Shown in pieces: positions 8,167 to 37,142 of a DNA stretch of 64,000 nt (position 1 is its first letter; every line of letters starts with the position of its first letter). A program made the position numbers and the translations under genes. The DNA lies in NCBI GenBank assembly GCA_963995505.1, contig OZ023181.1:17232221-17296220 (forward strand), written 5' to 3'. This DNA comes from Hypericum androsaemum (lineage: Eukaryota; Streptophyta; Magnoliopsida; Malpighiales; Hypericaceae). A model generated the notes under the pieces. It was not told the DNA's origin. It did not search any database and was given only the letters and a program-made list of their open reading frames with translations.

Positions 8167-8226
8167 TTCTTTTGTTTTGAAGCACCAAAAGCGAAGTCTT
8201 CTAGTTATAGTCCCAAGTCGGTTCAC

Positions 8227-10843: not shown

Positions 10844-10848
10844 GGTTC
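10844..10848. repeat. Left target-site duplication of the Ty3 element (GGTTC)
   Basis: GGTTC directly precedes the TGTTG terminus of the 5' LTR and is repeated at 26529-26533 directly after the CAACA terminus of the 3' LTR. Five-base duplications are the norm for LTR retrotransposons. Confidence 0.93.
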
Positions 10849-10929
10849 TGTTGGAGCACGAAATTAACATCTCGGAGTGATGACGGTCTATCTCCGGATG
10901 TGCGGGAATCGGCTCGAGCTCGGCGGAAT

Positions 10930-11150
10930 TTGGAGCCCGGGGCGAGAGGCTCCTCTCGCCCGCGTAGGCGAGGCCGAGGGCCTGGGCGAAGGCCCCTCTC
11001 GCCTGCGTAGGCGAGGCCGAGGGCCTGGGCGAGAGGCCCCTCTCGCCCGCGTAGGCGAGACCGAGGGCCTGGGCGAGAGGCCCCTCTCGCCCGCGTAGGC
11101 GAGACCGAGGGCCTGGGCGAGAGGCCCCTCTCGCCCGCGTAGACGAAACC
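10930..11150. repeat. LTR tandem array of about 44-bp units, each with a hairpin
   Basis: About five copies of a GC-rich unit beginning GCGAGGCCGAGGGCCTGGGC. Each includes the inverted repeat GCGAGAGG-CC-CCTCTCGC (variants in the first copies). The same array occurs in the 3' LTR at 25162-25382. Confidence 0.85.
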
Positions 11151-11214
11151 AAGCGAGGACTCTTCTCGCCCACATGGCCGAGCCCTATCGAGAAACTCGT
11201 CCGACTCAAAATAG

Positions 11215-11580
11215 GCGAGAGGCCGGTAGAAGACCGAGCGAGGGGCCGAATGGCGAGAGGCCGAGCGAGAGGCCTACGGCGAGAGGCCGAGTGGCGAGAG
11301 GCCAAGTGGCGAGAGGCTTACGGCGAGAGGCCAAGTGGCGAGAGGCCTACGGCGAGAGGCCAAGCGAGAGGCCGAGCGAGAGGCCGAGTGGCGAGAAGCC
11401 GAGCGAGAGGCCGAGTGGCGAGGGGCCGAGCGAGAGGCCTACGGCGAAAGGCCGAGTGGCGAGAGGTCGAGCGAGAGGCCTACGGCGAGAAGCCGAGCGG
11501 GAGGCCGAGTGGCAAAAGGCCGAGCGAGAGGCCTATGGCAAGAAGACAAGCGAGGAGCCTAAGGCAAGAAGCCGAAGGTG
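11215..11580. repeat. LTR array of short GCGAGAGGCC-type repeats
   Basis: Irregular tandem copies of GGCGAGAGGCC joined by short linkers such as GAGTG, AAGTG, GAGC and TAC. It is mirrored at 25447-25812 in the 3' LTR. It lies in U3 between the hairpin array and the TATA box. Confidence 0.8.
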
Positions 11581-12068
11581 AGAAGCCAACTTGGACCCGA
11601 GCGGGAAGCTCATTTGACCTTCGTAGGCGGGAAAGTGATTTCGGGAATAGGTCCACTTTGGTTGAGGAGGCCTTTAGCCTGAGCCCATTTTGAGATTCAG
11701 TTTGGGCCTGACGAGATGTTCGTCTTGGGCGATGACGGATTTGAATCAAGATTTTGCATGAGAGGTTCGAGAAGGTTAAAACGATCTATATTTTCCCAAT
11801 TTGAGCCGAGATTCTCAATATTTGGCAAGACTTGGTAAGTTCCTCTTTAGGCCGCGATCGCTTGGTCATCACGTTTTGAAAGCTTCCTATCCGAGGACGA
11901 GATTTGCTCATTTAAGGAAGACGGCTTGTATTGAGCCGAGAGGATCCCGTCATGTTAGGAACAAATAATTTGAAGCGGATCTCTCGGGATTGAGACTTGG
12001 AGCCGAAGGTCTTGGAGGCGGTTTAGGATTTCCTATTGTGAAGGCGTGGAGGTTAGGTCAAGGCACTC

Positions 12069-12075
12069 TATATAA
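12069..12075 (+). promoter_or_regulatory. TATA box in the 5' LTR
   Basis: TATATAA within CTCTATATAAGAAGG, at the expected U3 position about 220 bp before the LTR end. The identical motif is at 26301-26307 in the 3' LTR. Confidence 0.65.
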
Positions 12076-12302
12076 GAAGGGCTCGGGCAAGAGAACGGGA
12101 CATCACCAACACATCAAACAACAACTATCTTTACTTTTTATCTCGTAGCCCGTAGTCCTTTTTTCTCCCTCTCCCTTAGATTGAACGTCTAAGGTTCACT
12201 CTTTTTTCACCCTCTCCGTTAGGCCGACCTTGGGACGACCACTCCGGATCCATCTCGGGTAGTCTTGACGTTCTTGTACCCACTTTCTCCGCAACATATT
12301 TT

Positions 12303-12320
12303 TGGCATGCTCGGTGGGAC
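12303..12320 (+). promoter_or_regulatory. Probable primer-binding site
   Basis: TGGCATGCTCGGTGGGAC starts six bases after the 5' LTR end. The TGG start is the complement of a tRNA CCA tail, as expected for minus-strand priming. I could not match the rest to a specific tRNA. Confidence 0.5.
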
Positions 12321-12364
12321 TAAGGAGGGCGTCTGAGAAGGCGGTCTAGCTTCGTTTGATCAAG

Positions 12365-15300
12365 ATGACCAAGAACCATGCTGCTCAAGCCAATTCCAAC
12401 CCCAAGGAGGCGGCACCCTCTTCCCAGCAACTCGTTGGGAGGAATTCATCTGACGCGGTTTCCGGAAAGGAGACGGCACCACCCCTATCTTCTCAGCAAA
12501 ATGCCGGGAAGAACGTTACCAACTCGGCTCGCAACAAGGAGCCGGCTCTCCCTGTTGTCCAGACGGGGATCGGGAGGAGCAATACCAACCCGGTTCTCTT
12601 CAAGGAGTCGAATACTACCGACTCAGCCTTACTCATGGTGCTAGCCGACCAACTCACCTTAGTGGTTGAGAAGCTTGATATCATAGAGCGGAAGAACGAA
12701 GGATTACAACAGGACCTCGAACAGGTCATCAAGCGTTCGGAGGAGATCTCAGGGATGACCCAACAAACCGAGGAGTCCTACAAGCGGTTCTCTAATCAGA
12801 TCTCCAGTCAGATCCAAGGAGTCCGTAACCACGCGGACGAATCGATCCAGAGAGCGGCTATGGAGAGCAACCAGCACACCGTGGACTACTTCACCCAGAT
12901 CGTGAAGCCTGCTATAGTGAATGAAACTGCCAAGGTATTTGAGGCTCAAAGCAAGGGGAAGGGTGTGTCCACATCCTTCGATCATTCCAAGGTTGGCACC
13001 ATGTCGTTCGACAAAGTGCCGGAAACACCTTATGTGCTCAGCCGAAAGCCACCAGCAGGGACGCCCATGTACGTGCCATTCCAAGCGTCCTCAAGCAAGG
13101 AGACCCAAGGGATGGATGATTCAGGAATGGGATACACCCAACCACTCGGCGCTCAGGAGAGGTCACGCCCTCTCACGGTTGAGGCTGATCAAGGTTCCTT
13201 CGAGAAGGGGAGCATCCGGACGAATGCCCTGTACGAGCCAACGATTCCAAACGTCACCCCGACCACTCGACCAAGGCAAACCGAGTTGGATGAGGAGGAC
13301 GTCCACAACCCCATCAATCGGCAGCTGGTATATGATGGAAATCAAGCAAGGCCAGGCCAACGACAACCTAGACCTGAAGAAGAAGAGCTGAATCAGCGAC
13401 CACCTTTCGAGGGACGGCCGATACCTAACCTCAACCAAGAGGTCTACCAGAGGGAGGGATTGGCCGAGATGCTTAGGAACCTGGGGTTCGAACCAAGGAA
13501 TATCCCGCGTCCAAGGTTCGTTAAGCCTTACCCAGCGGATGTTGATCGAGTCCACTACCCACAGGGATATCGAGTCCCGGAGTTCACCAAGTTTTCAGGC
13601 GAAGAGAGCCAGTCGACGGTGGAGCACGTTGCTCGCTTCGTCATTCAATGCGGAGAAACCTCAATCCATGGAGCATGGCTTCTACGCCAGTTCCCTATGA
13701 CTCTGACCAAGACAGCCTTCGCTTGGTATATTAGCCTACCACCGGGTTCGGTGCGAGATTGGCCTGACATGGAACAGAAGTTTCACGACCAATTCTACAG
13801 GGCAGAGCCGACCATAACCATATCAGACTTCGCTCATATGCAACAGCTCGAAGGCGAATCCGTGGAAAAGTTCATAATTCGCTTTCGGAAGGCGAAGAAC
13901 AGGTGCCCGACCAACTTATCAGAGTCTGACTTAGCAGCTTTGGCCATGCAAGGGCTTACCTTTCGCCTTCGGAAGAAGCTCGGAGTCGGGAGGTTCCGAG
14001 ACCTATCCGAGTTGGCGCAAAAGGCCGCCATGGCACAACAGCTGATCTACGAGAAGGACAGAAGGACTTCTTCTTCAAAAGGTACCTACCATCGCTATGA
14101 CCCTACGCTTGAGATTGACCAATTTAGTGATGAATGGGGTCTCGAAGAAGGACAGACAATGGAGGAGATGGTGGCCGAGTTCAAGAAGGGCAAGCCATAT
14201 GAGTGCGAAAGCTTGGTCCACAAGACAATGACGGTCCCCAACGAGTTCCCCCGTCCCGGGAACTCGCCTCAACAGAGCAAGGGCTTTAACGAGGTTGGTC
14301 GAGAGTACTCGTTCGATGTTACAAAGGCCGATGAGATTTTTGATAATCTCCTCAAGAACGGCCAGATCGTGTTAACACCCGGACACAAGATCCCCGATGA
14401 GAAGGAGCTGAAGGGGATGAAATACTGCAAGTGGCATGCGAGCAAGTCATACAACACGGCCAATTGTGTGGTGTTCCACAACCAAGTGCAACAAGCGATC
14501 AAGGACGGGCGGCTGAGGTTCCCCAAAGAACAACCTTCGGCACCCTTTGCCGTACCCATCAATATGGTGAGTATGGCAAGGTACCAGAATGAGGAAGAAG
14601 ATCCCAAACATGCCCGACGGTCACCCCTCAACGACCTAAGGGAGAAGCTCGGGGGCCATGGATGCCAAGAACCTTCCCGAGACCTGAGAGAGATACTCGG
14701 AAGACATGGATGCCGAGAACCTTCTCGTGATCTGAGGGAGAAGCTCGGGGGGCATGGACGCCAAGAACCTTCCCGAGACCTGAGAGAGAAACTCGGGGGG
14801 CATGGACGCCAAGAACCTTCCCGAGACCTGAGAGAGAAACTCGGGGGGCATGGGTGCCAAGAACCTTCTCGAGATTTGAGGGATAAACTCGAGAGAAATG
14901 AACGACGAGAGTACCACCGGGACCAGAGGGATGGATTCGGGAAATACAGACAGCAAGGATCTCCTAAACACGAAAGACGAGAGCAGCCGAGTGAGTCCAT
15001 GAGACAACTTAGGGCGCAACAACTGCTGCGGGAGCTCAAGGAGACACTCGAAGGAAAAGAACTTCCAAGAGGCCCGGAGGAGAGTCCCGAGAGGCAAGAA
15101 CGCCCGAGAGACGTAAGAGAAAGACCCGGGGGGCAAGGTGGACAGCTTCGCCACCCTCACATCAAAATAGATCTCCGAGACGGCACTGAGCGTCAAGGAG
15201 GTGTATTCCACCGATTAGGCGAGAAGAGGCGTGCATCGAGACCACTTACACCTGAACCCCTTACTCATACTCAAAGGCGTCGCCTGGAAAGGAGGATTCA

Positions 15301-16954
15301 GGTCGAGAAGCAAGTCACTCGAGATCTGGAAAAGATGTTAGCCGAGCGCAAGGCTCGACTCAAAGAGCAGGAAACTCTCCTAGCCCTTCCCGAAGTTCCA
15401 TGCCGTGCGGCTTCTAGACAAAGCCGGTCCATGGAGATCGACGCCCCAAGGCCCGACAAAGGAAAAGCACCGATGAGAGAGGTCGATGGCAAGGACCAGA
15501 TGCCTATGATAGACTTTAGTGATGAAACGAAGTTATCAACACAAAGGTCCGACAAGGGGAAAGCACCAATGAAGGAATTTAGTGGATCAAGGATGTCGGC
15601 GACACTCATCAAGGCAAAGAGGCACATCGACTTCGGGGGAGAACGAGAGCTGAATAAGGTATGGGTACCGAAGACGGAATGTAAGGTCCGCCCCAAAGAT
15701 AACTCCTCACAAAAGGGGCGAACCACTCCACACGAGGAAGTCATGGTCGATCTAGATGCGGGGGTGGCAAGGTTTGGATCCTTCGAGAAATTAAGTCTCA
15801 ACGACACCTCGAGTCGGAATGAGGGGTCAGGTCGGGATGATAGCACTAGCAAGGATATGGAGGTCAGCAACCCTCTCAAAGAGAAAAAGGCTGTACACCC
15901 AGCCTGCGTTATGATAAAAAATTATGAGAAGTTGAGACTACACGGTCTCCCCGACCATCACGAAGAAGAGTTATTAGATTTAGATGGACTTATTGGGGAT
16001 GGTGATGATCTCACACTGGACGGCGAAGGCGACGAACCACCAAGTCCGAGTAACGAGAGAGAGTACTTGGCATGGCAGATGAGGCGTTTTGTTCGTGAAG
16101 ATGAGATGGGCGAGAAGGTAGAGCTAGAGGATAGCGCGAGTGAGGATGACCTCAATGAAGATAACCAAGACCTACAAGTCAATATGGTCTTCACCCTCCC
16201 GGCCATGTTCGGACCTAAGGAGAATCAGCCCAGTTACCTAGAAGGGGACGTGATTGAAGGAGATCTCGGAGAGTACGAGATCGGAGAGAAATCTATGGCG
16301 GTGCCCATAGTTGAAGACTTCAGCAATAGCATCACTATTGCAAAACCCACCACCAACATGTGTAGGCACCTCAAGCCGTTGTACATCACGGCTCATATCT
16401 TCGGGAAGCCGGTTGGAAGGATTCTGGTGGACAATGGGGCTACCGTCAATATCATTCCCCAGTCATTACTCCGAAGGCTGAACAAGGAGAAGGAGCGTTT
16501 GATTCCGACTGACATGGTCATGATGGACTTCGCGGGAAAGGGTACACGTCCACTCGGAATGCTCGCAGCCAAAATTAGTGTCGGTTCTGTGAGTAGGGAG
16601 GTCGCATTCTTTGTCATAGATGCGAAGACTTCCTATAACTGCTTGTTGGGGCGAGATTGGATTCACTCGGCTCAAGTCATCCCGTCGTCCCTTCATCAGT
16701 TCCTCATCCAATGGAAGCCGGACGGCAAGGTAGAGTTGGTGGCTGCCGACACCAATCCCTTCGCGTTGAATACCAATAATGTGGAAGCGGCCTTTTATGA
16801 TGGCTCCATGATACCAACATCAATGGCATGGAGCAACGAAGATGGCCGCATTGCCGGAATCGCATGCTCGGTCGAAAGGGAGGTCCCTTCTACCCAACGA
16901 CCAGTTACAGCTGCACTCGGGGGGCAACCGCTTAGGCTTGCCTTTCGAGAGTAA
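12365..16954 (+). CDS. gag: Ty3 element gag-protease polyprotein, 1,529 residues
   Basis: One open frame from the ATG at 12365; the frame extends nine bases further 5' only through a TTG codon. The first 130 residues are Ser/Pro/Gln-rich, followed by a likely coiled coil. The retrotransposon gag domain lies at about 13590-14060 (LLRQFPMTLTKTAFAWYISL, WPDMEQKFHDQFY, EKFIIRFRKAKNRCP). About 14630-14890 is a 16-residue tandem repeat. The aspartic protease active site reads VDNGATVNII near 16427-16456, with DNGA where DTG or DSG is usual. It forms the particle and processes the polyprotein. The frame ends at 16954, 30 bases after a G6 run where it gives way to the pol frame. Confidence 0.9.
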   Translation: MTKNHAAQANSNPKEAAPSSQQLVGRNSSDAVSGKETAPPLSSQQNAGKNVTNSARNKEPALPVVQTGIGRSNTNPVLFKESNTTDSALLMVLADQLTLVVEKLDIIERKNEGLQQDLEQVIKRSEEISGMTQQTEESYKRFSNQISSQIQGVRNHADESIQRAAMESNQHTVDYFTQIVKPAIVNETAKVFEAQSKGKGVSTSFDHSKVGTMSFDKVPETPYVLSRKPPAGTPMYVPFQASSSKETQGMDDSGMGYTQPLGAQERSRPLTVEADQGSFEKGSIRTNALYEPTIPNVTPTTRPRQTELDEEDVHNPINRQLVYDGNQARPGQRQPRPEEEELNQRPPFEGRPIPNLNQEVYQREGLAEMLRNLGFEPRNIPRPRFVKPYPADVDRVHYPQGYRVPEFTKFSGEESQSTVEHVARFVIQCGETSIHGAWLLRQFPMTLTKTAFAWYISLPPGSVRDWPDMEQKFHDQFYRAEPTITISDFAHMQQLEGESVEKFIIRFRKAKNRCPTNLSESDLAALAMQGLTFRLRKKLGVGRFRDLSELAQKAAMAQQLIYEKDRRTSSSKGTYHRYDPTLEIDQFSDEWGLEEGQTMEEMVAEFKKGKPYECESLVHKTMTVPNEFPRPGNSPQQSKGFNEVGREYSFDVTKADEIFDNLLKNGQIVLTPGHKIPDEKELKGMKYCKWHASKSYNTANCVVFHNQVQQAIKDGRLRFPKEQPSAPFAVPINMVSMARYQNEEEDPKHARRSPLNDLREKLGGHGCQEPSRDLREILGRHGCREPSRDLREKLGGHGRQEPSRDLREKLGGHGRQEPSRDLREKLGGHGCQEPSRDLRDKLERNERREYHRDQRDGFGKYRQQGSPKHERREQPSESMRQLRAQQLLRELKETLEGKELPRGPEESPERQERPRDVRERPGGQGGQLRHPHIKIDLRDGTERQGGVFHRLGEKRRASRPLTPEPLTHTQRRRLERRIQVEKQVTRDLEKMLAERKARLKEQETLLALPEVPCRAASRQSRSMEIDAPRPDKGKAPMREVDGKDQMPMIDFSDETKLSTQRSDKGKAPMKEFSGSRMSATLIKAKRHIDFGGERELNKVWVPKTECKVRPKDNSSQKGRTTPHEEVMVDLDAGVARFGSFEKLSLNDTSSRNEGSGRDDSTSKDMEVSNPLKEKKAVHPACVMIKNYEKLRLHGLPDHHEEELLDLDGLIGDGDDLTLDGEGDEPPSPSNEREYLAWQMRRFVREDEMGEKVELEDSASEDDLNEDNQDLQVNMVFTLPAMFGPKENQPSYLEGDVIEGDLGEYEIGEKSMAVPIVEDFSNSITIAKPTTNMCRHLKPLYITAHIFGKPVGRILVDNGATVNIIPQSLLRRLNKEKERLIPTDMVMMDFAGKGTRPLGMLAAKISVGSVSREVAFFVIDAKTSYNCLLGRDWIHSAQVIPSSLHQFLIQWKPDGKVELVAADTNPFALNTNNVEAAFYDGSMIPTSMAWSNEDGRIAGIACSVEREVPSTQRPVTAALGGQPLRLAFRE
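14630..14890 (+). repeat. 48-bp minisatellite inside gag (16-residue repeat)
   Basis: Five to six tandem units encode DLREKLGGHGCQEPSR with variants (EILGRHGCREPSR, EKLGGHGRQEPSR). The unit length is a multiple of three, so copy changes keep the frame. Charged Arg/Glu-rich sequence continues after the array. Confidence 0.85.
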
Positions 16955-19900
16955 TCCAACTGTTGAGAAGATGGCAAGGCGGATGGAGGTCTACGCCTTG
17001 TCACAATATGAAGCGGCCGAGTACGTCTTCGAGGATGACGGCCAAGACCCATTGGAGCTATTAAGGATGAGCGATCTCCACCCGGCACCAAGCAAGCTCG
17101 ATGATGCCAAGGCAGAGGTGAAGGATCCCTTAAAAGAAATAATTCTCCAATCAGAAAAAGGAGGCCGGCCCGTGTTCATCAGTGAGCGGCTTCCTGAAGA
17201 CTTCGAGATGGACCTGGTCGAGCTACTGACGGAGTACCAAGACTGTTTTGCTTGGGACTATGACGAGATGCCAGGCCTGGATAGATCCCTCATAGAACAT
17301 CGACTCCCTATAAGGCCGGGTTTTCGGCCTTACCAGCAGCCGATGAGGAGGATGATGCCGAAAGTAGTAGAGAAAGTCAAGCTAGAGATAGATAGACTCT
17401 TAGAAGCCGGCTTCATACGAAAAGCCGATTATGTGGAGTGGCTATCCAATATTGTACCCGTTGTCAAGAAGAATGGAAAAATTCGGGTTTGCATTGACTT
17501 TAGAGATTTAAACTCTGCTACTCCAAAAGATGAATATCAAATGCCCATCGCCGATATGTTGGTTGACGCGGCAGCCGGGCATGAAGTACTGAGTTTCATG
17601 GACGGTCATTCGGGTTACAATCAAATTTATCTTGCTGAGGAGGACGTTCATAAGACGGCGTTCAGATGTCCAGGGTCTATCGGGATTTTTGAGTGGGTAG
17701 TTATGCCTTTTGGACTCAAGAACGCCGGAGCTACATACCAAAAGGGGATGCACCTAATCTTTCCAGATTTCATCGGCAAATTTATGGAAGTATACATCGA
17801 TGATGTGGTGGTCAAGTCCCATGATCGCACCCAACACTTGAAGCACTTGCGGGCATCGTTTGAGAGGATGCGGGAACACCAGCTCAAGATGAACCCGTTA
17901 AAGTGTGCGTTCGGAGTGTCTGCGGGGAACTTCTTGGGATTTCTTGTCCATAAGCGAGGCATTGAGATCGATGAAAACAAGATCAAGGCAATTCAACAAG
18001 CCCAACCTCCTCGAAACAAGAAGGAGCTGCAACGTTTCCTCGGCCAAGTAAACTTCTTGCATCGGTTCATATCCAACACGGCGGGCCGGACACAGTCATT
18101 TGCCAACTTGCTCAAACTAAAGGGAGGCGAGTTCCAATGGGAAGCCAAGCACCAACAAGCCTTTGACGAGCTTAAGGCATACCTATCCACACCTCCGGTT
18201 GTCACTCCGCCATCCCCGAATCGACCGTTGTTGCTTTATGTATCGGCCGCCCAAGACTCAATTGGATGCCTACTGGCTCAGGAGAATGACGAAGGAAAAG
18301 AGCAGGCTGTGTACTACCTGAGTAGGTCGCTCTTGGGAGCGGAGACGAGGTATTCAGCCATTGAGAAGTTGTGCCTTTGTCTTTTCTTTGCTTGTAGAAA
18401 ATTGAGGTATTATCTCTTGCCCACGGAGGTAAAGGTGGTTGCCCAGACCGACGTCATCAAGCACTTACTCACCGGACCTATCATGAGAGGAAGGCTTGGT
18501 AAGTGGGCATTGGCCTTGGTGGAGTTCAACTTAACGTTCGTGCCTCAGCGAGCGGTGAAAGGGCAAGCATTGGCTGACTTCTTGGCTGACCACCCGTGTA
18601 TTGATGTGACTACTGATACGTCGGTGGATTTTGGGTTGATAGCGAAGAAACCATGGATGCTCTGGTTTGATGGCTCCCGCACCAACAAGTCCTCTGGGGC
18701 TGGGATCGTGATCAAATCTCCGACCGGTATCAAGACGAAAGCATCCTTCCTACTTAATTTTCCTTGCACCAACAATCGAGCCGAGTACGAGGCTTTGATA
18801 TTGGGGCTATTTATTTTAAAAGACCTTGGCGCCGAAACTGTCCGGGTGCTTGGTGATTCGATGTTGGTGGTCAAACAAGTGGTGGGCGAATTCAAGTGCG
18901 AGCGAGAAGGCTTCCAAGCCTATTGTGATGCTGCTCGATCGCTACTACGGAGTTTCGAAGATGCGATCATTGGATTCGTGGATCGCACCAAGAACATGGA
19001 GGCCAACAAGTTAGCACAGACCGGATCCAGTTTCCGTGCGTTCACCAAATTCAATTCCGTACCGGTGAAGGTCAGGTCGACCTCGGTATTAGAGGAGCTT
19101 AACCCGACGATCGAGATTGCTTTGTTACAACTCAACCGAGACTGGCGACAGGAATACATCGACTACCTCAAGGGCCCAAGCTCTTGCTCCGACAAGGCTT
19201 TGAAGATAAGGGCTCTTCGTTTCGAGCTCATCAACGACACCCTCTATCGATGGACCATCGACGGGTTACTTCTGGTTTGCCCAAGTCCACAAGAAGCTAT
19301 GCTAGCCATGACAGAGGTCCATGAAGGCATATGTGGAGCACACCAGTCAGGTATCAAGATGAGATGGTTAATGCATCGTCACGGCTACTTTTGGCCGGGT
19401 ATGGCAAATGACTGCATCAATTACGCGAAGGGGTGTCAAGAATGCCAAAGACATGGACGAGTTCAACACTCGCCGGCAGACACTTTTCATCCCGTAGTGA
19501 AGCCTTGGCCATTTCGGGGTTGGGCAGTTGATGTTATCGGGAAGATCCATCCCGCTTCTACCAAGGGACACGCCTTCATCATAGTGGCCACTGATTATTT
19601 TACAAAGTGGGTGGAGGCAGTCCCAATGAAGGTTGTGAACCAAGAGACGGTGATCCAGTTCTTTAAAGAACACATCATCCATAGGTTCGGGTTACCGGAG
19701 ACGATCACGACCGACCAAGCTACTATGTTCACCGGAGATGAAATCCAAAAGTTTGCCAGAGACATGGGCTTCCGAATCACCCACTCGACGCCTTATTATG
19801 CTCAAGGCAATGGTCAAGCGGAAGCTACCAATAAGGTATTAAAAGCGTGCATAGAGAAGATGGTGAGAGAGCGACCCAGAATGTGGCATCTCGCTCTATC

Positions 19901-20135
19901 GGAGGCGTTGTGGGCATTCCGCACTACAAAGAAGGGTGCCACTGGAACAACACCGTTCGCTCTTACTTATGGACACGATGCTATGATACCATTGGAAATG
20001 ACGGTCCGATCCTTGAGGAGGGCCGAGCAGGCAAACCTCTCCCGACTTGATTATGACTCGGCCATGTTGGCTGAACTTGAAGATCTTCCGGAAGAAAGGC
20101 TAAGGGCATTAGACGCGATCGTCCAGCAAAAGTAG
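16919..20135 (+). CDS. pol: Ty3 element pol: RT, RNase H, second RNase H, integrase
   Basis: This frame lies +1 relative to gag and becomes the coding frame at the G6 run; it is open from 16842. The RT is at about 17290-17990, with CIDFRDLNSATPKDEYQMP and the catalytic YIDD at 17793-17804 (YVDD or YADD is commoner). The Ty3 RNase H is at about 18140-18590. A second, plant/archaeal-type RNase H is at about 18650-19020 (MLWFDGSRTNKSSGAG, NNRAEYEALILG). Integrase has an HHCC zinc region at about 19320-19455 and DDE residues in AVDVIGK, TTDQATMF and NGQAEATNK (about 19525-19830). A TAG at 20133-20135 ends the frame early. Coding continues in frame after it to 20447. Confidence 0.92.
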
Positions 20136-20447
20136 ACTGTAGAGAAAGCCTACAACAAGCGGGTCCGAGAAAAGCATTTCGAGAGAGGGGATCTGGTGTG
20201 GAAGGTTATACTCCCACTGGGACGCAAAGACCCCGAGCTTGGAAAGTGGTCGCCAAATTGGGAAGGACCATTCGAGGTGCACGATGTGCTATGGAATGGA
20301 TCCTATCGACTTGCAGACATCAACGGTGAGGTTCATGAGCGCCCGATAAACGGACTTTACCTGAAGAAGTACCGGCCTAGCATGTGGGAGGGTGTGGATG
20401 ATCGTCTATTTCAAGATTATGCACGAACTTATAATCGAGAGATGTAA
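20136..20447 (+). pseudogene. Integrase C-terminal tail beyond the premature TAG
   Basis: The same frame as pol continues for 103 codons after the TAG, with the usual integrase C-terminal motifs (VEKAYNKRVREKHFERGDLV, GKWSPNWEGPFEV, NGLYLKKYRPS), and stops at a natural TAA. A CAG-to-TAG change (C to T) would explain the break; that is inference. The chromodomain of chromovirus integrases is absent, which fits the Tat lineage. Confidence 0.8.
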
Positions 20448-20773
20448 CCTAGCCGGTGATGGGTTTGCAGTAGAATCGCGCTTAGTCAGTATAGACTATG
20501 ACGACGGTTCTTTCGGTTTTCTGGTGGAACCGGTTATACATGTAACTTCATGATGTGTCTGGTTGGTGAAGATCAATAAAGGATAAGTTACTTCGTCGGC
20601 CTCTTCAAAGGCCACCAAAATCATGTTTCGCGATCAAGCCTAGCATACGGTTTTGATAGGACCGAATGTGCGTACGTCAAAGCTGGGTAAATAATAAATA
20701 CGACAGTCCAAAAGATCCCTAATACAAAAAGCTAGTCAAGCCAGCGGGATCGAAGAGCTCTAGGAGGTCGAAC
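20448..20773. other. Spacer between the convergent pol and antisense PMD genes
   Basis: 326 bp with no open frame. The integrase stop and the antisense gene stop face each other across it, so it probably carries 3' ends of transcripts from both strands. Confidence 0.4.
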
Positions 20774-23700
20774 TCATGCCCGTCCATTACTCTCTGATGG
20801 GGCGGTGCCAACATCAGGTTCAGAAAGGCAAGAGATCGCTCCGTCTACTAGTTCTCGAGCGGCGTCAATAAATACTCGATCATCAGCGTAGGCGTTCTTC
20901 TCTTGTCCTAGTAGTGCATCAGCAAGCTCGGATTCGTCTTTAGCACTCTTGAAGACGGTCGTCCCGTACTCCATGTTAGCCTGATGACAGGCTATCCTTT
21001 TCCCTCTCACACGGGCAAGTTCGTCTTGTGATCCCCGGTACTCGGAGTCAGCCTGGATCAAGCTCTCTTGAAGGCGGGCAATCTCAGCTCGAATACGGTT
21101 CGATGTCTCAGCCCGAGCGGTAACCATCCGTGCGGCTTCAAATTCTTCAGCCTTAACCAGTCTGAACTCGGCAACCCTGGACGCCATGTTGTTCTGGATC
21201 TCTGCGAAGGTCCTAGTATGAGCTTCCGCGTTCTGCTCCATGCAATGGATGGAGTCAACGTACCTTTCGCCTCTTTGATACCTGTAAAGAAACAAGTGTT
21301 AAGAATGGGTTCAATTAAGGTGGTGGGGAGAAAAGCGAATGTAAAAGAGCTTACCAGTGGACAACACGGGCAAAGTCGGCGTGTAGCTTGCGAATGGGAG
21401 TAGGTTGGTTGCCGGTGGATGGCCCGTGGTTTATCAAATACTCAAGGGCCGCGTATGCATAGGCTGGAGGTTCTAAAAACATAGTACTTACCGTCTGGCT
21501 CTTAAGGTCATGAAGGTAACGGATCAAGTTGGCTCTGTGCTTGTCTTTTTCTGTGTCGGCACATGCGGATGTCAGAACTTCAGGTAGCAAAGTCGGAGTG
21601 ATCGGAGGGTTGATCGACTCGTCTATGGTGAATCCTATGCTCTCATAGAATGCCTAGCATGGAATAACAAGTGTGACCCAATAGAGTGATGAGACATACG
21701 GAAAAACAAAGTTGGAGAAGACACATACCAGCTCGGAGGCGTCAATCAGAGGTATAGGAGGGGCTGGAGCAACGATAGGTGTCAGTGACGGTCCGGACGT
21801 AGGAGGCGGAGCAATAGTCGAAGGCATCGGAGGATGCACGATATCTGAGATGACCTCCTCGCTCTCGGTCATCCTGGTGTTGAAGGTATCAGTGCCTGAA
21901 GAAGGTGCTGCCGGAGGTGAAGGTGTATAACCAGGGGAGTAAACAGGATCAAGCATCGCTTGGAACTCGGTTTCATCGTCTAGAGGCTCGAAAATCATGA
22001 TGCTGGTAGGGCGACTTTGACGCGGAGGATTTCTTCTGAGCCTTGAAGGCGAGACGGCATGGGTAGACTCAGGGTCAGTAGTGGGGCTGACTCGTACAGG
22101 AGATGCTTCGGGTGATGAGTCCTGAAGTGATGTGAGTTAAGCAGAAGGCTTATTGGTACCAGGTAAGTACCCGAAGTTAGTTTTTACCTTTTCAGACGAA
22201 GACGAAGGGTATCCCACGAGTCTGACCGAAGGAGAGGAAGCTCGAAGGTCAACGTCTGTGCAATAATAAGAAGGCGGTTATGGACAAGTGAAGAACATGG
22301 TAGGTATGAGAGTAAGGGGACTTACCATCGTCTGGGAGGCCGGAGTCGTTCGTTTGGGAAGGAGACGCCGAGGCACCCGCCTGGTCATTGGTAACCGAGT
22401 GGTCGACCCTTTGTTTCTTCCTCGGAGGGGCTTTTCCTCGCCTTAGAACAGTGTCTGCCGTGGGGGGTGTATCTTTGAAAAAGGTAAAGGTCTCGGCTAG
22501 TTGCTTGTCGTTGGCCTTCCAACATGTGAGTGTCGCCCACCAAGCCGCGAAGGCGGGAGAACGACCGGAAGAGAAGTTGAAGCAGCTGATTGTGCTTCGG
22601 TGTAAAAGGTAACTGTTTGCCGCGAGGGAAAGTTCCACCTTTTCCCATTTATGTGAGCCTCGGTCGGCTCGGTGTCCATGGAGAAGGTAGTTGGTGGGGA
22701 ACGGAATCCCTTGGATGAGACCTAGCTGCTCAGCGACAAAGTGAGGATTGTAGGGTGCTACGACCATCCTCCCGGGACAACTTCCACTAATAAGGTCTCG
22801 GGCGGTGAGTATACTCTTCCAAGCATCAGCGCTATGAATCACGTTAGAGAAATTGAGGAAGTTAGGGCGGCAAGTCGCATGAAGAAGTGGAGAAGTTTGA
22901 TTACCGCTACGGTCCTTGTTGAAGGCCCGGAAGTAGGGACGAAGATCTTTCGTGGGTTTCTTTACCCGAGCCCGAAGAAGATGATGGCCGTAGCTAGGTA
23001 ATGACCCGTCATATGTAGGGAGTGAAGGTGTCAACTCGGGGAAGTAAGCTAGGCACCATATGGCGACCATCCATAAGGGACCGTTGGCGGTGAAAGTCCT
23101 CTTCAATCGATAAGTGTTGATAAAGATGGCCATCTGGTCGTAGATGTGAGAGAGGATGAATTGCCCCATTGCCATTTTCCGTCCCTCGGCTAGTGCAGCA
23201 GCTAAGTTGAAGTATTCATTTGACACACGTTTGGAAGACGGGCAGGTGATGTAGCGGGTAATCCAAAGGAGCAAGAAGGCCGTGTGCTCATCTCTATGGC
23301 GAAGCTCATCGCTGGGCGCATAATCAGGGACGCTTGCGTTCGCAGTGGTGACGGGGTTGGGTTCTCTTCGAGGATCGTCATCCCGTAGTCGATAGGCTTT
23401 GACATAGGCGGGAAAACCATTTGCTACTGGCCTATTGGCCTCATGCCGAACCCGGCCATTGGCATCAGACACTGGGGTAGACGGGAGGATCGGTTCACCA
23501 TCGGGATGAAGGCCAAAAAGGGCAGCCATATCGTATAATGTGATAGTCTTCATTCCTACAAGGGGAGATAAGATGGATAAGAAGCTTGATGAAGGCAAAG
23601 AAGAATCATCGATGCTAAAGGTAGCTTACCCGAGCGGAAAAGAAACACGTTGGCACTAGGGCACCAATAGAGAAGCAAGGTGCCGAGTAGTGGACGACAT

Positions 23701-24077
23701 GGCTCAATGCGGCGTGCGCAAAGGGACAAGAGTGAGCCGATGCCGGTTTGGTCCCATTGTGGTTGGTGGAATGGTTTCAGGACGGCGTGCCAACTCTCGA
23801 ACTCTTGGAATGGTGTAGGCCATCCGCGGTATCCGTTACAGTTGTTCCAAAAGTATAAGTTGAAGGGAGCGCCTTGAAAGAGAGGCACGTCACGGTAATG
23901 GACCGGAAGGAAATCTTCAAAGGTCTCTACGTTGGTAATCGTGGGTCCAAGTACTCGATTTTCTTTATCTTGAGAGGTATCATCGACCGGGTAGCTTTCT
24001 CCAAGTGTGGATGTGATGAGGACGTTGGAGGAGCGTTGTTCTTCCTTCTCGATATCAGGAGGTATCGGCATGACCAT
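20774..24077 (-). CDS. Antisense plant mobile domain (PMD) gene in the retrotransposon, 6 exons
   Basis: Exons on the minus strand: 24077-23630, 23555-22326, 22255-22188, 22121-21729, 21653-21355 and 21281-20774. All five introns are GT-AG and 66-75 nt. The exons total 2,946 nt, giving 981 residues plus stop with no in-frame stop. Residues up to about 150 and on into exon 2 form a PMD (aminotransferase-like) domain: WHAVLKPFHQPQWDQTGIGS, then after splicing FLFRSGMKTITLYDMAALFG. The middle is Pro/Ser-rich (exons 3-4). The last exon is Glu/Ala/Arg-rich and probably a coiled coil (EIARLQESLIQADSEYRG). Host PMD proteins such as MAIN and MAIL1 act in transposon silencing and meristem maintenance. 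Here the role is unknown. An earlier exon is possible, because an AG lies just before the chosen ATG. Confidence 0.8.
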
Positions 24078-25080
24078 CCTAACATCATTAAACAAACAAG
24101 GGTTAGCAAAGACGGTGTTAAAAGGACGGTGAGAACACCCGTTTGATCGCTTTGGATTTTTGGGCCGACGCGGATGGGTTCTCGCCTCGGACCTAGCGGG
24201 CGAAGCTTACCGGCGAGAGTACTTTCTCGCCTCGGGCCTAGGGAGCAAGGCCTACCGGCGTGCGCGTTTTCTCATCTCGAGTCGAGCAAGGGAGACCAAG
24301 CTCCTCGTGGGCCGTTCGGTCGAGCCCAACTCGGGTCACTAGGGCCGAATTTACCTAGGCGAGAAATGTCAAGCTCTTATCCGAAGTGCGTAAAGGAATT
24401 GGCGAACCGACGTTGGTTCGCGATGGAGAGTAAGGTGTGTGGTGTATTCTCCTCGATCAAGGTCTAAGCTATGGAATTACCCCAAGTTCAAAAGCCAAGA
24501 GGAAGAAGTGCAAAATGATGGGTTTGGCATTTTCACAAACACTTGGTGTGCAAGTGTTAAAGCTTGGAAACATACCTTGAAGTGGAGTTAGAGGCGAGCC
24601 AAAAGGAATACAAGGGATTTGCAAGCCTCCAAAAGGTGGAGGGCAACTCTAGTCCAAGGCAAATAAGTCCTCCTACAAGTTGTGAGATTTGACCAAGAAG
24701 TGAGCTACTTTCATATTCTTCTTTACAATCATAATGGAGAAGGGAGGGAAACTTACTTTGAAGATTAAACACACCTTGGCAACTTTGGAGATGGAGGAGT
24801 GATTCAAATTTTAGTTGGAGTTGTTAAGAAAGGAAAAATGGAGGCCAAGCTTTGATTTCCATGGTGGATGTTGGGAAATGAAGAGTGGTGAGAATGTGAA
24901 GAGAATGGGGGGCTTTGTTCTTTTTAGGCTAGGTCAATGACATCTTTGGGGTCCACCAAGTCAAAGAGGGAAGTTTGAAATTCAAAGGAGTCAAGTTTGA
25001 TCCTAGCTTGAAAATTCGGAGGGAAACACGTCAACATTTCTCGGAATGGACGCCTCGAACTATCGACGTGCGGGGGGCAT
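24078..25080. other. Region between the antisense gene and the 3' LTR; polypurine tract
   Basis: No coding frame is supported. 24160-24350 repeats CTCGCCTCG-type motifs related to the LTR arrays. The short purine run GCGGGGGGCA at about 25070-25079 directly precedes the 3' LTR and is the likely plus-strand primer tract. The antisense gene's promoter should lie here or in the 3' LTR. Confidence 0.45.
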
Positions 25081-26528
25081 TGTTGGAGCACGAAATTAAC
25101 ATCTCGGAGTGATGACGGTCTATCTCCGGATGTGCGGGAATCAGCTCGAGCTCGGCGGAATTTGGAGCCCGGGGCGAGAGGCTCCTCTCGCCCGCGTAGG
25201 CGAGGCCGAGGGCCTGGGCGAAGGCCCCTCTCGCCCGCGTAGGCGAGGCCGAGGGCCTGGACGAGAGGCCCCTCTCGCCCGCGTAGGCGAGACCGAGGGC
25301 CTGGGCGAGAGGCCCCTCTCGCCCGCGTAGGCGAGACCGAGGGCCTGGGCGAGAGGCCCCTCTCGCCCGCGTAGACGAAACCAAGCGAGGACTCTTCTCG
25401 CCCACATGGCCGAGCCCTATCGAGAAACTCGTCCGACTCAAAATAGGCGAGAGGCCGGTAGAAGACCGAGCGAGGGGCCGAATGGCGAGAGGCCGAGCGA
25501 GAGGCCTACGGCGAGAGGCCGAGTGGCGAGAGGCCAAGTGGCGAGAGGCTTACGGCGAGAGGCCAAGTGGCGAGAGGCCTACGACGAGAGGCCAAGCGAG
25601 AGGCCGAGCGAGAGGCCGAGTGGCGAGAAGCCGAGCGAGAGGCCGAGTGGCGAGGGGCCGAGCGAGAGGCCTACGGCGAAAGGCCGAGTGGCGAGAGGTC
25701 GAGCGAGAGGCCTACGGCGAGAAGCCGAGCGGGAGGCCGAGTGGCAAAAGGCCGAGCGAGAGGCCTATGGCAAGAAGACAAGCGAGGAGCCTAAGGCAAG
25801 AAGCCGAAGGTGAGAAGCCAACTTGGACCCGAGCGGGAAGCTCATTTGACCTTCGTAGGCGGGAAAGTGATTTCGGGAATAGGTCCACTTTGGTTGAGGA
25901 GGCCTTTAGCCTGAGCCCATTTTGAGATTCAGTTTGGGCCTGACGAGATGTTCGTCTTGGGCGATGACGGATTTGAATCAAGATTTTGCATGAGAGGTTC
26001 GAGAAGGTTAAAACGATCTATATTTTCCCAATTTGAGCCGAGATTCTCAATATTTGGCAAGACTTGGTAAGTTCCTCTTTAGGCCGCGATCGCTTGGTCA
26101 TCACGTTTTGAAAGCTTCCTATCCGAGGACGAGATTTGCTCATTTAAGGAAGACGGCTTGTATTGAGCCGAGAGGATCCCGTCATGTTAGGAACAAATAA
26201 TTTGAAGCGGATCTCTCGGGATTGAGACTTGGAGCCGAAGGTCTTGGAGGCGGTTTAGGATTTCCTATTGTGAAGGCGTGGAGGTTAGGTCAAGGCACTC
26301 TATATAAGAAGGGCTCGGGCAAGAGAACGGGACATCACCAACACATCAAACAACAACTATCTTTACTTTTTATCTCGTAGCCCGTAGTCCTTTTTTCTCC
26401 CTCTCCCTTAGATTGAACGTCTAAGGTTCACTCTTTTTTCACCCTCTCCGTTAGGCCGACCTTGGGACGACCACTCCGGATCCATCTCGGGTAGTCTTGA
26501 CGTTCTTGTACCCACTTTCTCCGCAACA
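25081..26528 (+). repeat. 3' LTR of the Ty3 element
   Basis: 1,448 bp, the same length as the 5' LTR. Differences seen by eye: A at 25143 versus G, C versus T in the second hairpin unit, A versus G in GGCCTGGACG near 25261, and A versus G in CTACGACGAG near 25583. The remainder reads the same on inspection. Confidence 0.95.
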
Positions 26529-26533
26529 GGTTC
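26529..26533. repeat. Right target-site duplication of the Ty3 element (GGTTC)
   Basis: GGTTC immediately follows the CAACA end of the 3' LTR and equals 10844-10848. Confidence 0.93.
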
Positions 26534-35100: not shown

Positions 35101-35660
35101 TTTTTCAGGGCACCAACCTTTCTTCCTCCGCTTCACACCTCCAACCTCCATCTCTCATCCTCCTCAACCTCCATCACTCATCCTCCCCAACCTCCATCAT
35201 CACAGCCGCAGCCGCCCTCCATCATCGCAGCCTCAGTCGCAGTCGTGCTCGCCCACCGTCATCGACATCTCTGCCGTTTGATCCGCCGTGAGCTCACCTA
35301 GCCGCCACCGCCCACTCCTCTCCGCTCGCCCGTCGTCATCGTTATATGCTTGCCTCTCCACCCTCCATCCTCCCCAACCTCCACCGTCGTAGCCGCCTCC
35401 GCCCGCTTGCCGTCGTCATCGCCCGCTCCTCATCGCTCGCCCGCCCTCCGTTCCTTTGCTAGGTTTTTCTGTTCTTTTTTACTTTTCCTTTTCTCAACTT
35501 TCGGCTTCCGTTTGTTTGTTTTTTTTCGTTTTTTTTCTTTTTTCGTTTTTTTTTCTTTTTTTTCGTTTTTTTTTGTTTTTTTTTGTTTTCGTTTTCTTTT
35601 TTCTTTTTTCGTTTTTTTGTTTTTTTTCAGGTAGAAATTATACCTTGGACAATAAGGATC

Positions 35661-37142
35661 ATGGAATCGAGAGCGGTGGCCTTAGAGCTCCGTGGCCAGA
35701 CTGACCAAGATATATTGGACTTATCGGCGGATCTCACTGGACTGACCCAGTCCCATGCGACTACGGAGTTGGTCGGGCTGGTTTGGTCTGAAAAGGCGGT
35801 CAACTCAAGGGCTTTCTGTACGGTGATGAAGGAAGTATGGCGCCCACGGAAGGGATTGACATTCTCCGAGATAGGGCGCAATCGATTTATGTGCCAGTTC
35901 AATGATCGACGTGATTTAGAAAGGGTTATGGGAGACCAACCGTGGTTATTTGATAAGAATTTTCTCCTCCTTCGGGAGGTGACTGATGAGGTTCAACCTT
36001 CTGTTATCGATCTTTTTCATGTTCCGGTGTGGATTCGAGTGCATGATCTACCAATGGGAGGTTATAACCTGATTACAGCTAAAGCACTTGGGAATGTGTT
36101 GGGTTCTTTTCTGGCCATGGATGAATCGGAAGAGCTGAAGGGTAATTTCCTTCGAATTCGAGTGCAACTGGATGTTAGGGTTGCCCTGTTAAAGTCGAAG
36201 ATGATCAAGCTTGGAGGTGATGTGGTCGTTAGGGTTACTTTCAAGTATGAGAAGCTAATGTCCTTTTGCTATCGATGCGGCTGCCTTGGACACATTGAGA
36301 AAATGTGCGATTTGGAGGAGGAAGATGTCTCAAGGGTTCCATCACAGGAGACATATGGAGAATGGCTTCGAGCTCCACCCTTTGTATCGCGGCGATCACC
36401 TAACCCAGATTCAGAACGCTTCTCTTTTGCTAATATGAGGGCTCAGCTTGTTCGAGGGAGTAGAACTCCAACCCAGGAATCTAACAATAGGATGGAATCT
36501 ATGGTGGAAGATGGGTCAGCAGCCGTGACGGAAATACAGTCTGCGCTCCGGGCATCGGAACTGCTTCCGGGGGGACGCCCAAGAGCCATTGCTTTAGCCC
36601 ACAGCACCTCAGAAGGGGGGGAGGCGCATCCCCTCCACCAGGCTTCCTCTAACCCTACATCATTTACTTTTGGTGTTTGTCCCTCGCGTTATATACCCTC
36701 TCAGAGACATGTTTTTATTGTACAGGAACAGGCACTTAATCTGGCGAGGCAGATGATCCCTATAGCTGGACAAGACATGGAGACTGTTGTTTTGGTTAGG
36801 CAAAAGGACTTGGTCAACCCAAGAGGTGAGGTGTATGTCCATCCTCCAGCTGTGGAAGATGGAAATGAGGAGAAATCGAGGAACATGGGAACTGCTCAGG
36901 CTCGGAATGTGACTATTGATAGCATGAATGTTCGCGGTTGGAAGCGAAGGGAAAGAATTGCAACGGCTGATGGAGGGCTCGGAGATGTAGAGATGGACTT
37001 TATCTGTGGTGAGAAGAGGAAAAGTGCTTTCAGGGATGACGAAGAGTATCATGTTAGCAAGCGGATTTCTGCTGTTTCAGATGCTCCAGGTCCTTCCCTA
37101 TCCCAGGCGGAGGCTGCGAAGCAGCCCCGCCAGGAGCCATGA
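35661..37142 (+). CDS. L1 ORF1 protein, DUF4283 plus CCHC zinc knuckle
   Basis: 493 residues from the ATG at 35661. The frame is open from 35583, but that leader reads as T-rich Phe tracts without an ATG. The N-terminal half carries the DUF4283-type region (RPRKGLTFSEIGRNRFMCQF, GDQPWLFDKNFLLL, LFHVPVWIRVHDLPMGG). A zinc knuckle follows, with CYRCGCLGHIEKMC at about 36269-36310 (CX2CX4HX4C). The C-terminal part is low in known motifs. ORF1 proteins bind element RNA and chaperone nucleic acids. The stop overlaps the ORF2 start as ATGA at 37139-37142. Confidence 0.88.
   Translation: MESRAVALELRGQTDQDILDLSADLTGLTQSHATTELVGLVWSEKAVNSRAFCTVMKEVWRPRKGLTFSEIGRNRFMCQFNDRRDLERVMGDQPWLFDKNFLLLREVTDEVQPSVIDLFHVPVWIRVHDLPMGGYNLITAKALGNVLGSFLAMDESEELKGNFLRIRVQLDVRVALLKSKMIKLGGDVVVRVTFKYEKLMSFCYRCGCLGHIEKMCDLEEEDVSRVPSQETYGEWLRAPPFVSRRSPNPDSERFSFANMRAQLVRGSRTPTQESNNRMESMVEDGSAAVTEIQSALRASELLPGGRPRAIALAHSTSEGGEAHPLHQASSNPTSFTFGVCPSRYIPSQRHVFIVQEQALNLARQMIPIAGQDMETVVLVRQKDLVNPRGEVYVHPPAVEDGNEEKSRNMGTAQARNVTIDSMNVRGWKRRERIATADGGLGDVEMDFICGEKRKSAFRDDEEYHVSKRISAVSDAPGPSLSQAEAAKQPRQEP

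What the first reader, a model, noticed from the sequence alone, without database searches (positions are those of the whole stretch)
20774..24077. Intact five-intron antisense PMD gene carried inside a Ty3/gypsy retrotransposon
Six minus-strand exons with GT-AG introns of 66-75 nt join into one uninterrupted 981-codon frame (2,946 nt). The product has a plant mobile domain, a proline-rich middle and a probable coiled-coil tail. It lies antisense to gag-pol between integrase and the 3' LTR. Sense genomic RNA would show its splice sites only as reverse complements, so the introns survive retrotransposition. Extra antisense ORFs are known in Tat-lineage elements and PMD genes are known to be linked to transposons. 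What stands out here is a complete, intron-rich, apparently selected gene. Since host PMD proteins take part in silencing, the copy could act as an anti-silencing factor (inference).
Basis: partly seen in the sequence, partly recalled or inferred. Interest (0 to 1): 0.88.

Follow-up and report, generated by a model that had tools for sequence, protein, structure and literature searches.

The report
Selected antisense gene inside plant retrotransposon
A young plant jumping gene carries, on its opposite strand, a complete six-exon gene of a family linked to gene silencing; related copies show that natural selection has preserved this gene, and that its two main versions each go with a different repeated DNA pattern in the element's control regions, which suggests it may help the element regulate itself.

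Summary
Minus-strand exons 24077-20774 join into one 981-codon frame with a PF10536 (PMD) domain, between integrase and the 3' LTR of a young Tat-clade Ty3/gypsy element (10849-26528; LTRs 99.7% identical).

Against five copies of a clade about 75% identical in exon-2 protein, dN/dS is 0.19-0.20 at dS 0.72-0.735. All five GT-AG pairs survive in 4 of these 5, and intron 1 keeps position and phase in a 51% relative. Most single copies are nevertheless broken.

Antisense ORFs in Tat elements and gypsy-encoded PMDs are published. New here are conserved introns with measured selection, and a modular pattern: PMD gene, leader and LTR arrays diverged far more than adjoining pol (dS 0.72 against 0.09 in one element), and PMD clades go with different LTR motifs (11:0 versus 0:6 among scorable copies), as in VANC/VANDAL anti-silencing systems. 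That function is inferred: no expression, binding or methylation was tested, and physical linkage alone could give the co-segregation.

The parts
10844..10848 (.). target-site duplication GGTTC (left copy)
10849..12296 (+). 5' LTR, 1448 bp, TG...CA ends
   Evidence: 99.72% identical to 3' LTR, 4 transitions
10940..11575 (+). tandem arrays in the 5' LTR (44-bp units and overlapping 15/26/41/121-bp units built on GGCGAGAGGCC)
   Evidence: TRF; k-mer counts
12303..12320 (+). putative primer-binding site; tRNA not identified
   Evidence: sequence; assignment inferred
12350..16954 (+). gag-protease open frame (Retrotrans_gag, Asp_protease_2)
16812..20135 (+). pol open frame: RT, RNase H, second RNase H (RVT_3), integrase; different frame from gag-pro, 143-nt overlap
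23630..24077 (-). PMD gene exon 1 (start codon 24077 or 24071)
23556..23629 (-). intron 1 (74 nt, GT-AG); same position and phase in the 51% relative L052 (76 nt)
22326..23555 (-). exon 2 (most of the plant mobile domain)
   Evidence: PF10536 3.7e-28 for the open frame holding it
22256..22325 (-). intron 2 (70 nt)
22188..22255 (-). exon 3
22122..22187 (-). intron 3 (66 nt)
21729..22121 (-). exon 4 (within the Pro/Ser/Thr-rich middle)
21654..21728 (-). intron 4 (75 nt)
21355..21653 (-). exon 5
21282..21354 (-). intron 5 (73 nt)
20774..21281 (-). exon 6, long-helix tail and stop
   Evidence: dN/dS 0.12
24078..25080 (-). leader/promoter side of the PMD gene; holds 5 GGCGAG motifs (24180-24598) shared with the LTR arrays; possible 5'-UTR introns (donors 24756, 24575)
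25081..26528 (+). 3' LTR
25172..25807 (+). tandem arrays in the 3' LTR (GGCGAGA family)
26529..26533 (.). target-site duplication GGTTC (right copy)

Best explanation
This is an accessory gene of a recently inserted Tat-clade Ty3/gypsy retrotransposon: a gypsy-encoded PMD gene, antisense to gag-pol, with five introns. SHOWN: intact frame, PMD domain, purifying selection along the spliced frame, splice sites conserved in a clade separated by dS about 0.73, and the same place antisense to pol in three lineages (window, 75% clade, 51% relative). INFERRED: it is transcribed from its own leader and spliced; genomic RNA is sense, so the introns are invisible to the spliceosome during retrotransposition and survive; the protein acts in the nucleus (basic PPRKKQRV stretch) in favour of the element. 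My preferred mechanism is a chromatin or transcription factor that acts on the element's own LTR arrays and its own leader, countering silencing, in the way VANC proteins serve VANDAL transposons.
For: Gene model and chance tests. Selection: L047-L051 against the window give dN/dS 0.19-0.20 at dS 0.72-0.735; by part in L047, L049 and L050: N-terminus 0.25-0.26, PMD 0.14-0.15, middle 0.29-0.30, tail 0.12; third-position excess in all five parts, checked in L047 and L049; binomial p below 1e-50 against equal rates, with an approximate site count that I put in. Of 29 close copies 21 give 0.20-0.31. All five GT-AG pairs in 19 of 29 close copies and in 4 of 5 of the 75% clade. In L047 and L049 exonic indels are 96 and 3 nt, while introns also took 4- and 5-nt insertions. 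Intron 1 at the same place and phase in L052. Antisense to pol again in L053/L047, L054/L049 and L055/L052. Module: pol dS 0.093 (L054) and 0.293 (L053) against PMD dS 0.72-0.735 of the same two elements, with identity falling near 20.5 kb. LTR motif follows PMD clade; the leader carries the motif of its own LTR type in 28 of 30 window-clade copies, and in L052.
Against: No RNA, protein, binding or methylation data. Most copies are individually broken (5 of 29 close and 2 of 6 more distant pass the test). Eight of 29 close copies have dN/dS 0.36-0.76, four of them badly aligned. PMD, leader and U3 are contiguous, so one template switch carries all three and co-segregation needs no function. 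In the 75% clade the leader has only one GGCGGTA, in 4 of 5 copies. No sequence link to VANC proteins was tested. Exon identity exceeds intron identity in 29 of 34 copies, not all. In L052 introns 4 and 5 were not recovered by the alignment. The 0.62 covers the shown part and service to the element with the exact mechanism open; the motif-specific step alone I hold at about one in three.
Confidence: 0.62

Rival explanations
1. The PMD protein is selected for an element function that has nothing to do with LTR motif recognition (for example nuclear import, RNA export, integration-site choice or decoying host PMD/PP7L complexes); the LTR arrays co-segregate only because they are physically linked. 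These odds overlap with the best explanation, which shares all but the motif step.
For: Contiguity of PMD, leader and LTR; fall of identity near 20.5 kb in both elements examined; host PMD proteins MAIN/MAIL1 act together with PP7L (passages of PMC7156037).
Against: The same motif recurs in the leader, about 0.5 kb away from the LTR, in the window clade, and in the leader of L052; arrays of different unit lengths keep GGCGAGA among the most frequent 7-mers in 5 of 5 window-clade LTR stretches that held an LTR.
Confidence: 0.5
2. A captured host PMD gene riding as a passenger, neutral for the element.
For: Host-like PMD genes exist in this genome: eight hits in a cluster on contig C8, each with the whole domain in one open frame.
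Against: dN/dS about 0.2 at dS 0.72-0.735, with 2 of 5 sister copies intact; only 22-27% identity to the C8 cluster, which has no intron inside the domain; antisense position shared with the 51% relative.
Confidence: 0.03
3. The antisense transcript itself (dsRNA trigger or transcriptional interference) is the function, the protein being incidental.
For: Antisense transcripts as possible regulators of retrotransposons are discussed in a review (passages of PMC7264820); PMD loci make phasiRNAs in tea (passages of PMC10673657).
Against: Amino-acid-level constraint and splice-site conservation point to a protein.
Confidence: 0.05
4. Domesticated host gene that happens to overlap an element.
For: Intact and selected.
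Against: 107 matches on many contigs, with pol beside the gene in each of the three further copies where I read that side; young LTRs and TSD around this one.
Confidence: 0.01

Closest known systems
Gypsy-encoded PMD clades PMD-A1/A2 (Ikeda et al. 2017, PMC5418596, passages) and PMD eORFs reported in 57% of Ogre elements (Neumann et al. 2019, PMC6317226, passages)
   Same: PMD protein encoded by a plant Ty3/gypsy element
   Different: Passages read mention no introns in these genes, no selection and no LTR-array link; position and orientation of the PMD eORFs are not given in the text I saw; tree placement of our gene was not tested
[quoted passage not shown] PMC7264820, passages)
   Same: Same place and orientation; nuclear protein and own promoter reported for Grande gene23
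   Different: Retand ORFs carry Transposase_28 (PF04195) rather than PMD and were sought as ORFs; the 2020 review asks for a look at spliced antisense transcripts
VANC anti-silencing proteins of VANDAL transposons (PMC10398659, abstract and passages; PMC5735166, listing only)
   Same: Accessory protein plus noncoding tandem-repeat motifs that differ between otherwise similar elements
   Different: Not an LTR retrotransposon; VANC function is experimental, here only the pattern is seen; homology not tested
Host PMD proteins MAIN/MAIL1 (PMC5418596, PMC7156037, passages)
   Same: PMD domain, role in transposon silencing
   Different: Host genes; they act with PP7L; no arrays of this kind mentioned in the passages read
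Intron-bearing plant LTR retrotransposons Ogre and EVADE (PMC12786077, passages)
   Same: Plant LTR elements with functional introns
   Different: Those introns are used in sense transcripts; the review passage says plant LTR elements generally lack introns

Membership tests
Plant mobile domain (PF10536) | Pfam profile above gathering score | tested here: met
   120.2 bits, cutoff 34.9, profile 15-346 of 347
Tat clade of Ty3/gypsy | second RNase H (aRH) | tested here: met
   RT_RNaseH_2 at 433-532 and RVT_3 at 609-727 of pol; criterion from PMC6317226
Ogre/Retand (angiosperm Tat) | aRH between RH and INT | tested here: met
   domain order RT-RH-RVT_3-H2C2-rve
Retand | antisense Transposase_28 (PF04195) ORF | tested here: not met
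   no PF04195 at E up to 10 in the spliced product; two Retand clusters of PMC11963269 also lack it
Ogre | gag-pro and pol ORFs separated by an intron region | tested here: inconclusive
   the two frames overlap by 143 nt; splicing not testable
Ogre | PMD-coding extra ORF (57% of elements) | tested here: met
   frequency from PMC6317226
Ogre versus Retand | RT-RH-INT tree position and PBS type | not testable with these tools
   no named plant reference elements found in the collections searched
PMD-A (gypsy-encoded) | falls in clade A of the PMD tree | not testable with these tools
   no relatives at E up to 0.001 in the protein database
VANC-type anti-silencing system | noncoding tandem arrays whose motif changes with the accessory protein | tested here: met
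   confounded by linkage
VANC-type anti-silencing system | protein binds arrays and removes silent marks | not testable with these tools
   needs experiments
VANC-type anti-silencing system | sequence homology to VANC | not tested
   no VANC sequence was compared; Pfam gave only PMD above its cut-off

The most novel reading that the evidence does not exclude
Plant Ty3/gypsy elements have evolved their own VANC-like system. The spliced antisense PMD protein is a dimeric, motif-specific factor that binds near-palindromic sites repeated in its own LTR (GGCGAGAGG-CC-CCTCTCGCC in one clade, GGCGGTA-GTA-TACCGCC in the other) and in its own promoter side. PMD gene, leader and U3 are exchanged between elements as one specificity cassette while gag-pol stays common. 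Elements that share the LTR motif but show no PMD match nearby may be served in trans.
Probability: 0.3. Interest if true: 0.88.

Novelty: new variant of a known kind. Interest (0 to 1): 0.68.

Why it matters
What antisense accessory genes of plant LTR retrotransposons do is an open question in the two works read on them (PMC7264820, PMC11963269). Here such a gene has five introns and has been under amino-acid-level selection in transposing lineages, so it most likely does something for the element. The antisense position also explains how a retroelement can keep introns. The linked, clade-specific LTR motifs give a cheap binding test of an anti-silencing role, and bear on the question, left open in PMC5418596, of how host silencing PMDs and element PMDs are related.

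Tried and rejected
Relatives outside the genome: the protein database gave nothing at E up to 0.001 for the 981-aa product (7,995 candidates scored) or the exon-2 frame (5,374 candidates); viral contigs gave nothing for PMD, pol or an RT motif; PDB sequences gave nothing at E up to 0.1 for the exon-2 frame. I take these collections to hold little plant sequence, so absence says little.

Structure: the PMD exon folded without relatives gave pLDDT 33, unusable. Tail model pLDDT 81, two helices; Foldseek against PDB had no hit at E up to 0.001. Heptad test p 0.11-0.72, so coiled coil was downgraded to helices.

Captured host gene: judged unlikely at 22-27% identity to the C8 cluster, whose eight hits have no intron within the domain. 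Rfam: no family at gathering score in the window. TATA-like hexamer on the minus strand between gene and LTR: none found.

Rows and copies dropped: L052 was left out of the exon/intron comparison (34 of 35 aligned copies used). In dN/dS, codons with gaps, insertions or stops in the copy were skipped. L024, L029, L035 and L043 align poorly and give dN/dS 0.55-0.76; L027 (0.56), L036 (0.45), L026 (0.39) and L018 (0.36) also lie above the 0.20-0.31 of the other 21. The compared pol parts of L053, L054 and L055 hold 1, 4 and 5 stops, skipped as well. L061 (stretch beside L040) held no LTR match and is not scored. The motif cross-table used C1-C4 only, because listings stop at 100 places: 32 of 107 PMD rows. 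On those contigs I left out two 75% fragments (C1:12224151, C1:12977883) and two rows beyond the listed range (C4:21438297, C4:15655854). Its Fisher p (8e-5) treats related copies as independent. The motifs were picked from the window and from fetched sister LTRs, so finding them there is expected; the information is in the absence of mixtures and in the leaders. Chance expectation in the leaders was computed only for GGCGAG and GGCGGT (100 shuffles each), not for the longer motifs. In the window itself, of the 20 commonest LTR 6-mers only some recur in the leader (sum 20 against 7.9 expected; 9 of 20 absent); the same sum is also raised, less strongly, in the PMD gene, gag-pol and 20136-20773.

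Full report
WHAT IS THERE. The element spans 10849-26528: two 1,448-bp LTRs at 99.72% identity (4 differences, all transitions) flanked by the 5-bp duplication GGTTC. At a recalled rate of 1.3e-8 per site per year this is about 0.1 million years old (inference). gag-protease (12350-16954) and pol (16812-20135) are open in different frames with a 143-nt overlap. The domain order RT, RNase H, second RNase H, integrase marks the Tat clade and, by the criterion in PMC6317226 (passages read), the Ogre/Retand part of it. I could not decide between Ogre and Retand. The host plant is not identified.

THE ANTISENSE GENE. Six exons on the minus strand join to 981 codons. A splicer that knew only GT-AG-like sites and intron length found the same reading (2,943 nt; 200 shuffles at most 495). 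PF10536 scores 120.2 bits on the spliced product against 99.1 for the exon-2 frame alone. Exons have 52.6% G+C, introns 40.5%. The product is an N-terminal part, PMD (126-489), a basic PPRKKQRV stretch near 526, a Pro/Ser/Thr-rich middle, and a tail predicted as two long helices.

COPIES IN THE SAME GENOME. The genome search answered after repeated failures. The exon-2 protein has 107 matching rows (a lower bound; 102 of 294 candidates scored): 51 rows at 84-100% identity, the rest at 43-81%; some rows are fragments of one copy. I compared 29 close copies (L018-L046), five of the 75% clade (L047-L051) and one 51% relative (L052) with the window.

SELECTION. Against L047-L051 whole-gene dN/dS is 0.19-0.20 with dS 0.72-0.735. 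By part, in L047, L049 and L050: N-terminus 0.25-0.26, PMD 0.14-0.15, residues 490-559 0.25-0.34, middle 0.29-0.30, tail 0.12. Differences concentrate at third positions in every part, including exons 3-6, for which Pfam has no support (L047 and L049). Of the close copies 21 of 29 give 0.20-0.31 and eight lie above (0.36-0.76), four of them poorly aligned. All five GT-AG pairs remain in 19 of 29 close copies and in L047, L048, L049 and L051. Five close copies (of 29) and two more distant ones (of 6) are intact over 24077-20830; the rest carry stops, frame breaks or lost sites, as expected of old insertions. Intron 1 is kept in position and phase in L052; its introns 4 and 5 were not recovered by the alignment. 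So the frame was under selection as a spliced protein in the transposing lineages. Introns can persist because the genomic RNA shows them only as reverse complements (inference from orientation).

MODULES. The same element pairs give very different divergence along their length. For the element holding L049, pol dS to the window is 0.093 (L054); for that holding L047 it is 0.293 and patchy (L053); yet their PMD dS is 0.720 and 0.735. Identity is 0.92-1.0 up to about 20.50 kb and 0.62-0.88 beyond, some 0.25 kb past the gene's 3' end. The 3' LTRs are also almost unrelated: against the window's leader and LTR, L056 aligns over 243 bp and L057 over 42 bp near the LTR end, plus one 91-bp patch in L057. 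PMD, leader and U3 have therefore been inherited as a block apart from pol, as one template switch would do (inference). In the 51% relative, pol is 84-87% identical in protein and PMD 48-54%.

LTR MOTIFS. The window's LTRs hold arrays in which GGCGAGA occurs about 15 times per kb, against 0.05-0.09 in the flanks. Five of six window-clade 3' stretches read have 13-22 copies of it and none of GGCGGTA; the sixth (L061) shows no LTR. Four of four 75%-clade stretches have 9-14 GGCGGTA and one GGCGAGA each; the 51% relative has a CGAGCGAG array. Genome-wide, exact patterns of the two arrays occur 546 and 117 times (reversed controls 0). On C1-C4, of 14 PMD rows at 84% or more, 11 adjoin array A, 0 array B, 3 neither; of 10 at 72-83%, 6 adjoin B, 0 A, 4 neither; of 8 below 72%, one (a fragment next to a 77% fragment) adjoins B and 7 neither. 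The leader upstream of the PMD gene repeats the motif: GGCGAG 3-8 times in 28 of 30 window-clade copies including the window (0.05-0.63 expected), zero in L035 and L043; GGCGGT in none of the 30; in the 75% clade GGCGAG 0-1 and one GGCGGTA in 4 of 5; L052 has CGAGCGAG three times, which no other copy has. Both array patterns are near-palindromes (18 of 20 and 14 of 17 positions), as sites of dimeric proteins often are (general knowledge).

READING. This pattern, an accessory protein and noncoding repeat motifs that change together while the rest of the element is shared, is what has been described for VANC proteins of VANDAL transposons (PMC10398659, abstract and passages). Ikeda et al. (PMC5418596, passages) already speculate that PMDs captured by MULE elements serve anti-silencing. 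Here linkage is a full alternative: PMD, leader and U3 are neighbours. I hold the gene and its selection as shown, a service to the element as very likely, and motif recognition as about one in three.

PRIOR WORK. PMD in 57% of Ogre elements (PMC6317226), gypsy-only PMD-A1/A2 clades (PMC5418596), PMD as the most frequent non-canonical domain in plant gypsy consensuses (PMC9289625, passages), antisense ORFs in all representative Retand elements (PMC11963269, parts 1-3 of 5 read), and sense-strand introns in Ogre and EVADE (PMC12786077, passages) are known. Steinbauerova et al. 2011 is not held; I know it only from citations and recall. In the listings I saw no report of a multi-intron antisense PMD gene or of PMD-LTR motif co-segregation; these searches cover open-licence papers only, and just twelve papers were opened, nearly all as passages.

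Noticed in passing
G000 contigs C1-C4 (listed places): array A 26 of 45 clusters, array B 7 of 17 clusters: Many LTR-array clusters lie more than 16 kb from any PMD row of the table, several as pairs 4-5.5 kb apart (for example C4:11283764/11289302, C3:15559664/15563855). They may be short elements without PMD that share the LTR motif, solo LTRs, or copies whose PMD was not scored.
   Followed up: partly
L001-L008 (contig C8, 16.59-16.67 Mb): A cluster of eight PMD hits with the whole domain in one open frame of 717-864 aa, 22-27% identical to the window gene.
   Followed up: partly
L009-L016: PMD is very abundant in this genome (858 first-look candidates, 117 scored). Other PMD families split the domain over two frames, for example in L009; L011, fetched around another PMD hit, also holds a MULE transposase ORF.
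   Followed up: partly
window 14633-14891: 48-bp (16-aa) tandem repeats inside the gag-protease frame.
   Followed up: no
window 35583-41229 and 42406-44121: LINE-type reading frames (endonuclease, RT, RNase H-like, zf-RVT).
   Followed up: no
window 6199-8226, minus strand: Open frame of 675 codons full of pentatricopeptide repeats.
   Followed up: no
window 21854-21858 in exon 4: The five sister-clade copies and L039/L040 carry 96 extra nt in the exons (L042: 63), multiples of three; placed here in L047, L049 and L050.
   Followed up: partly
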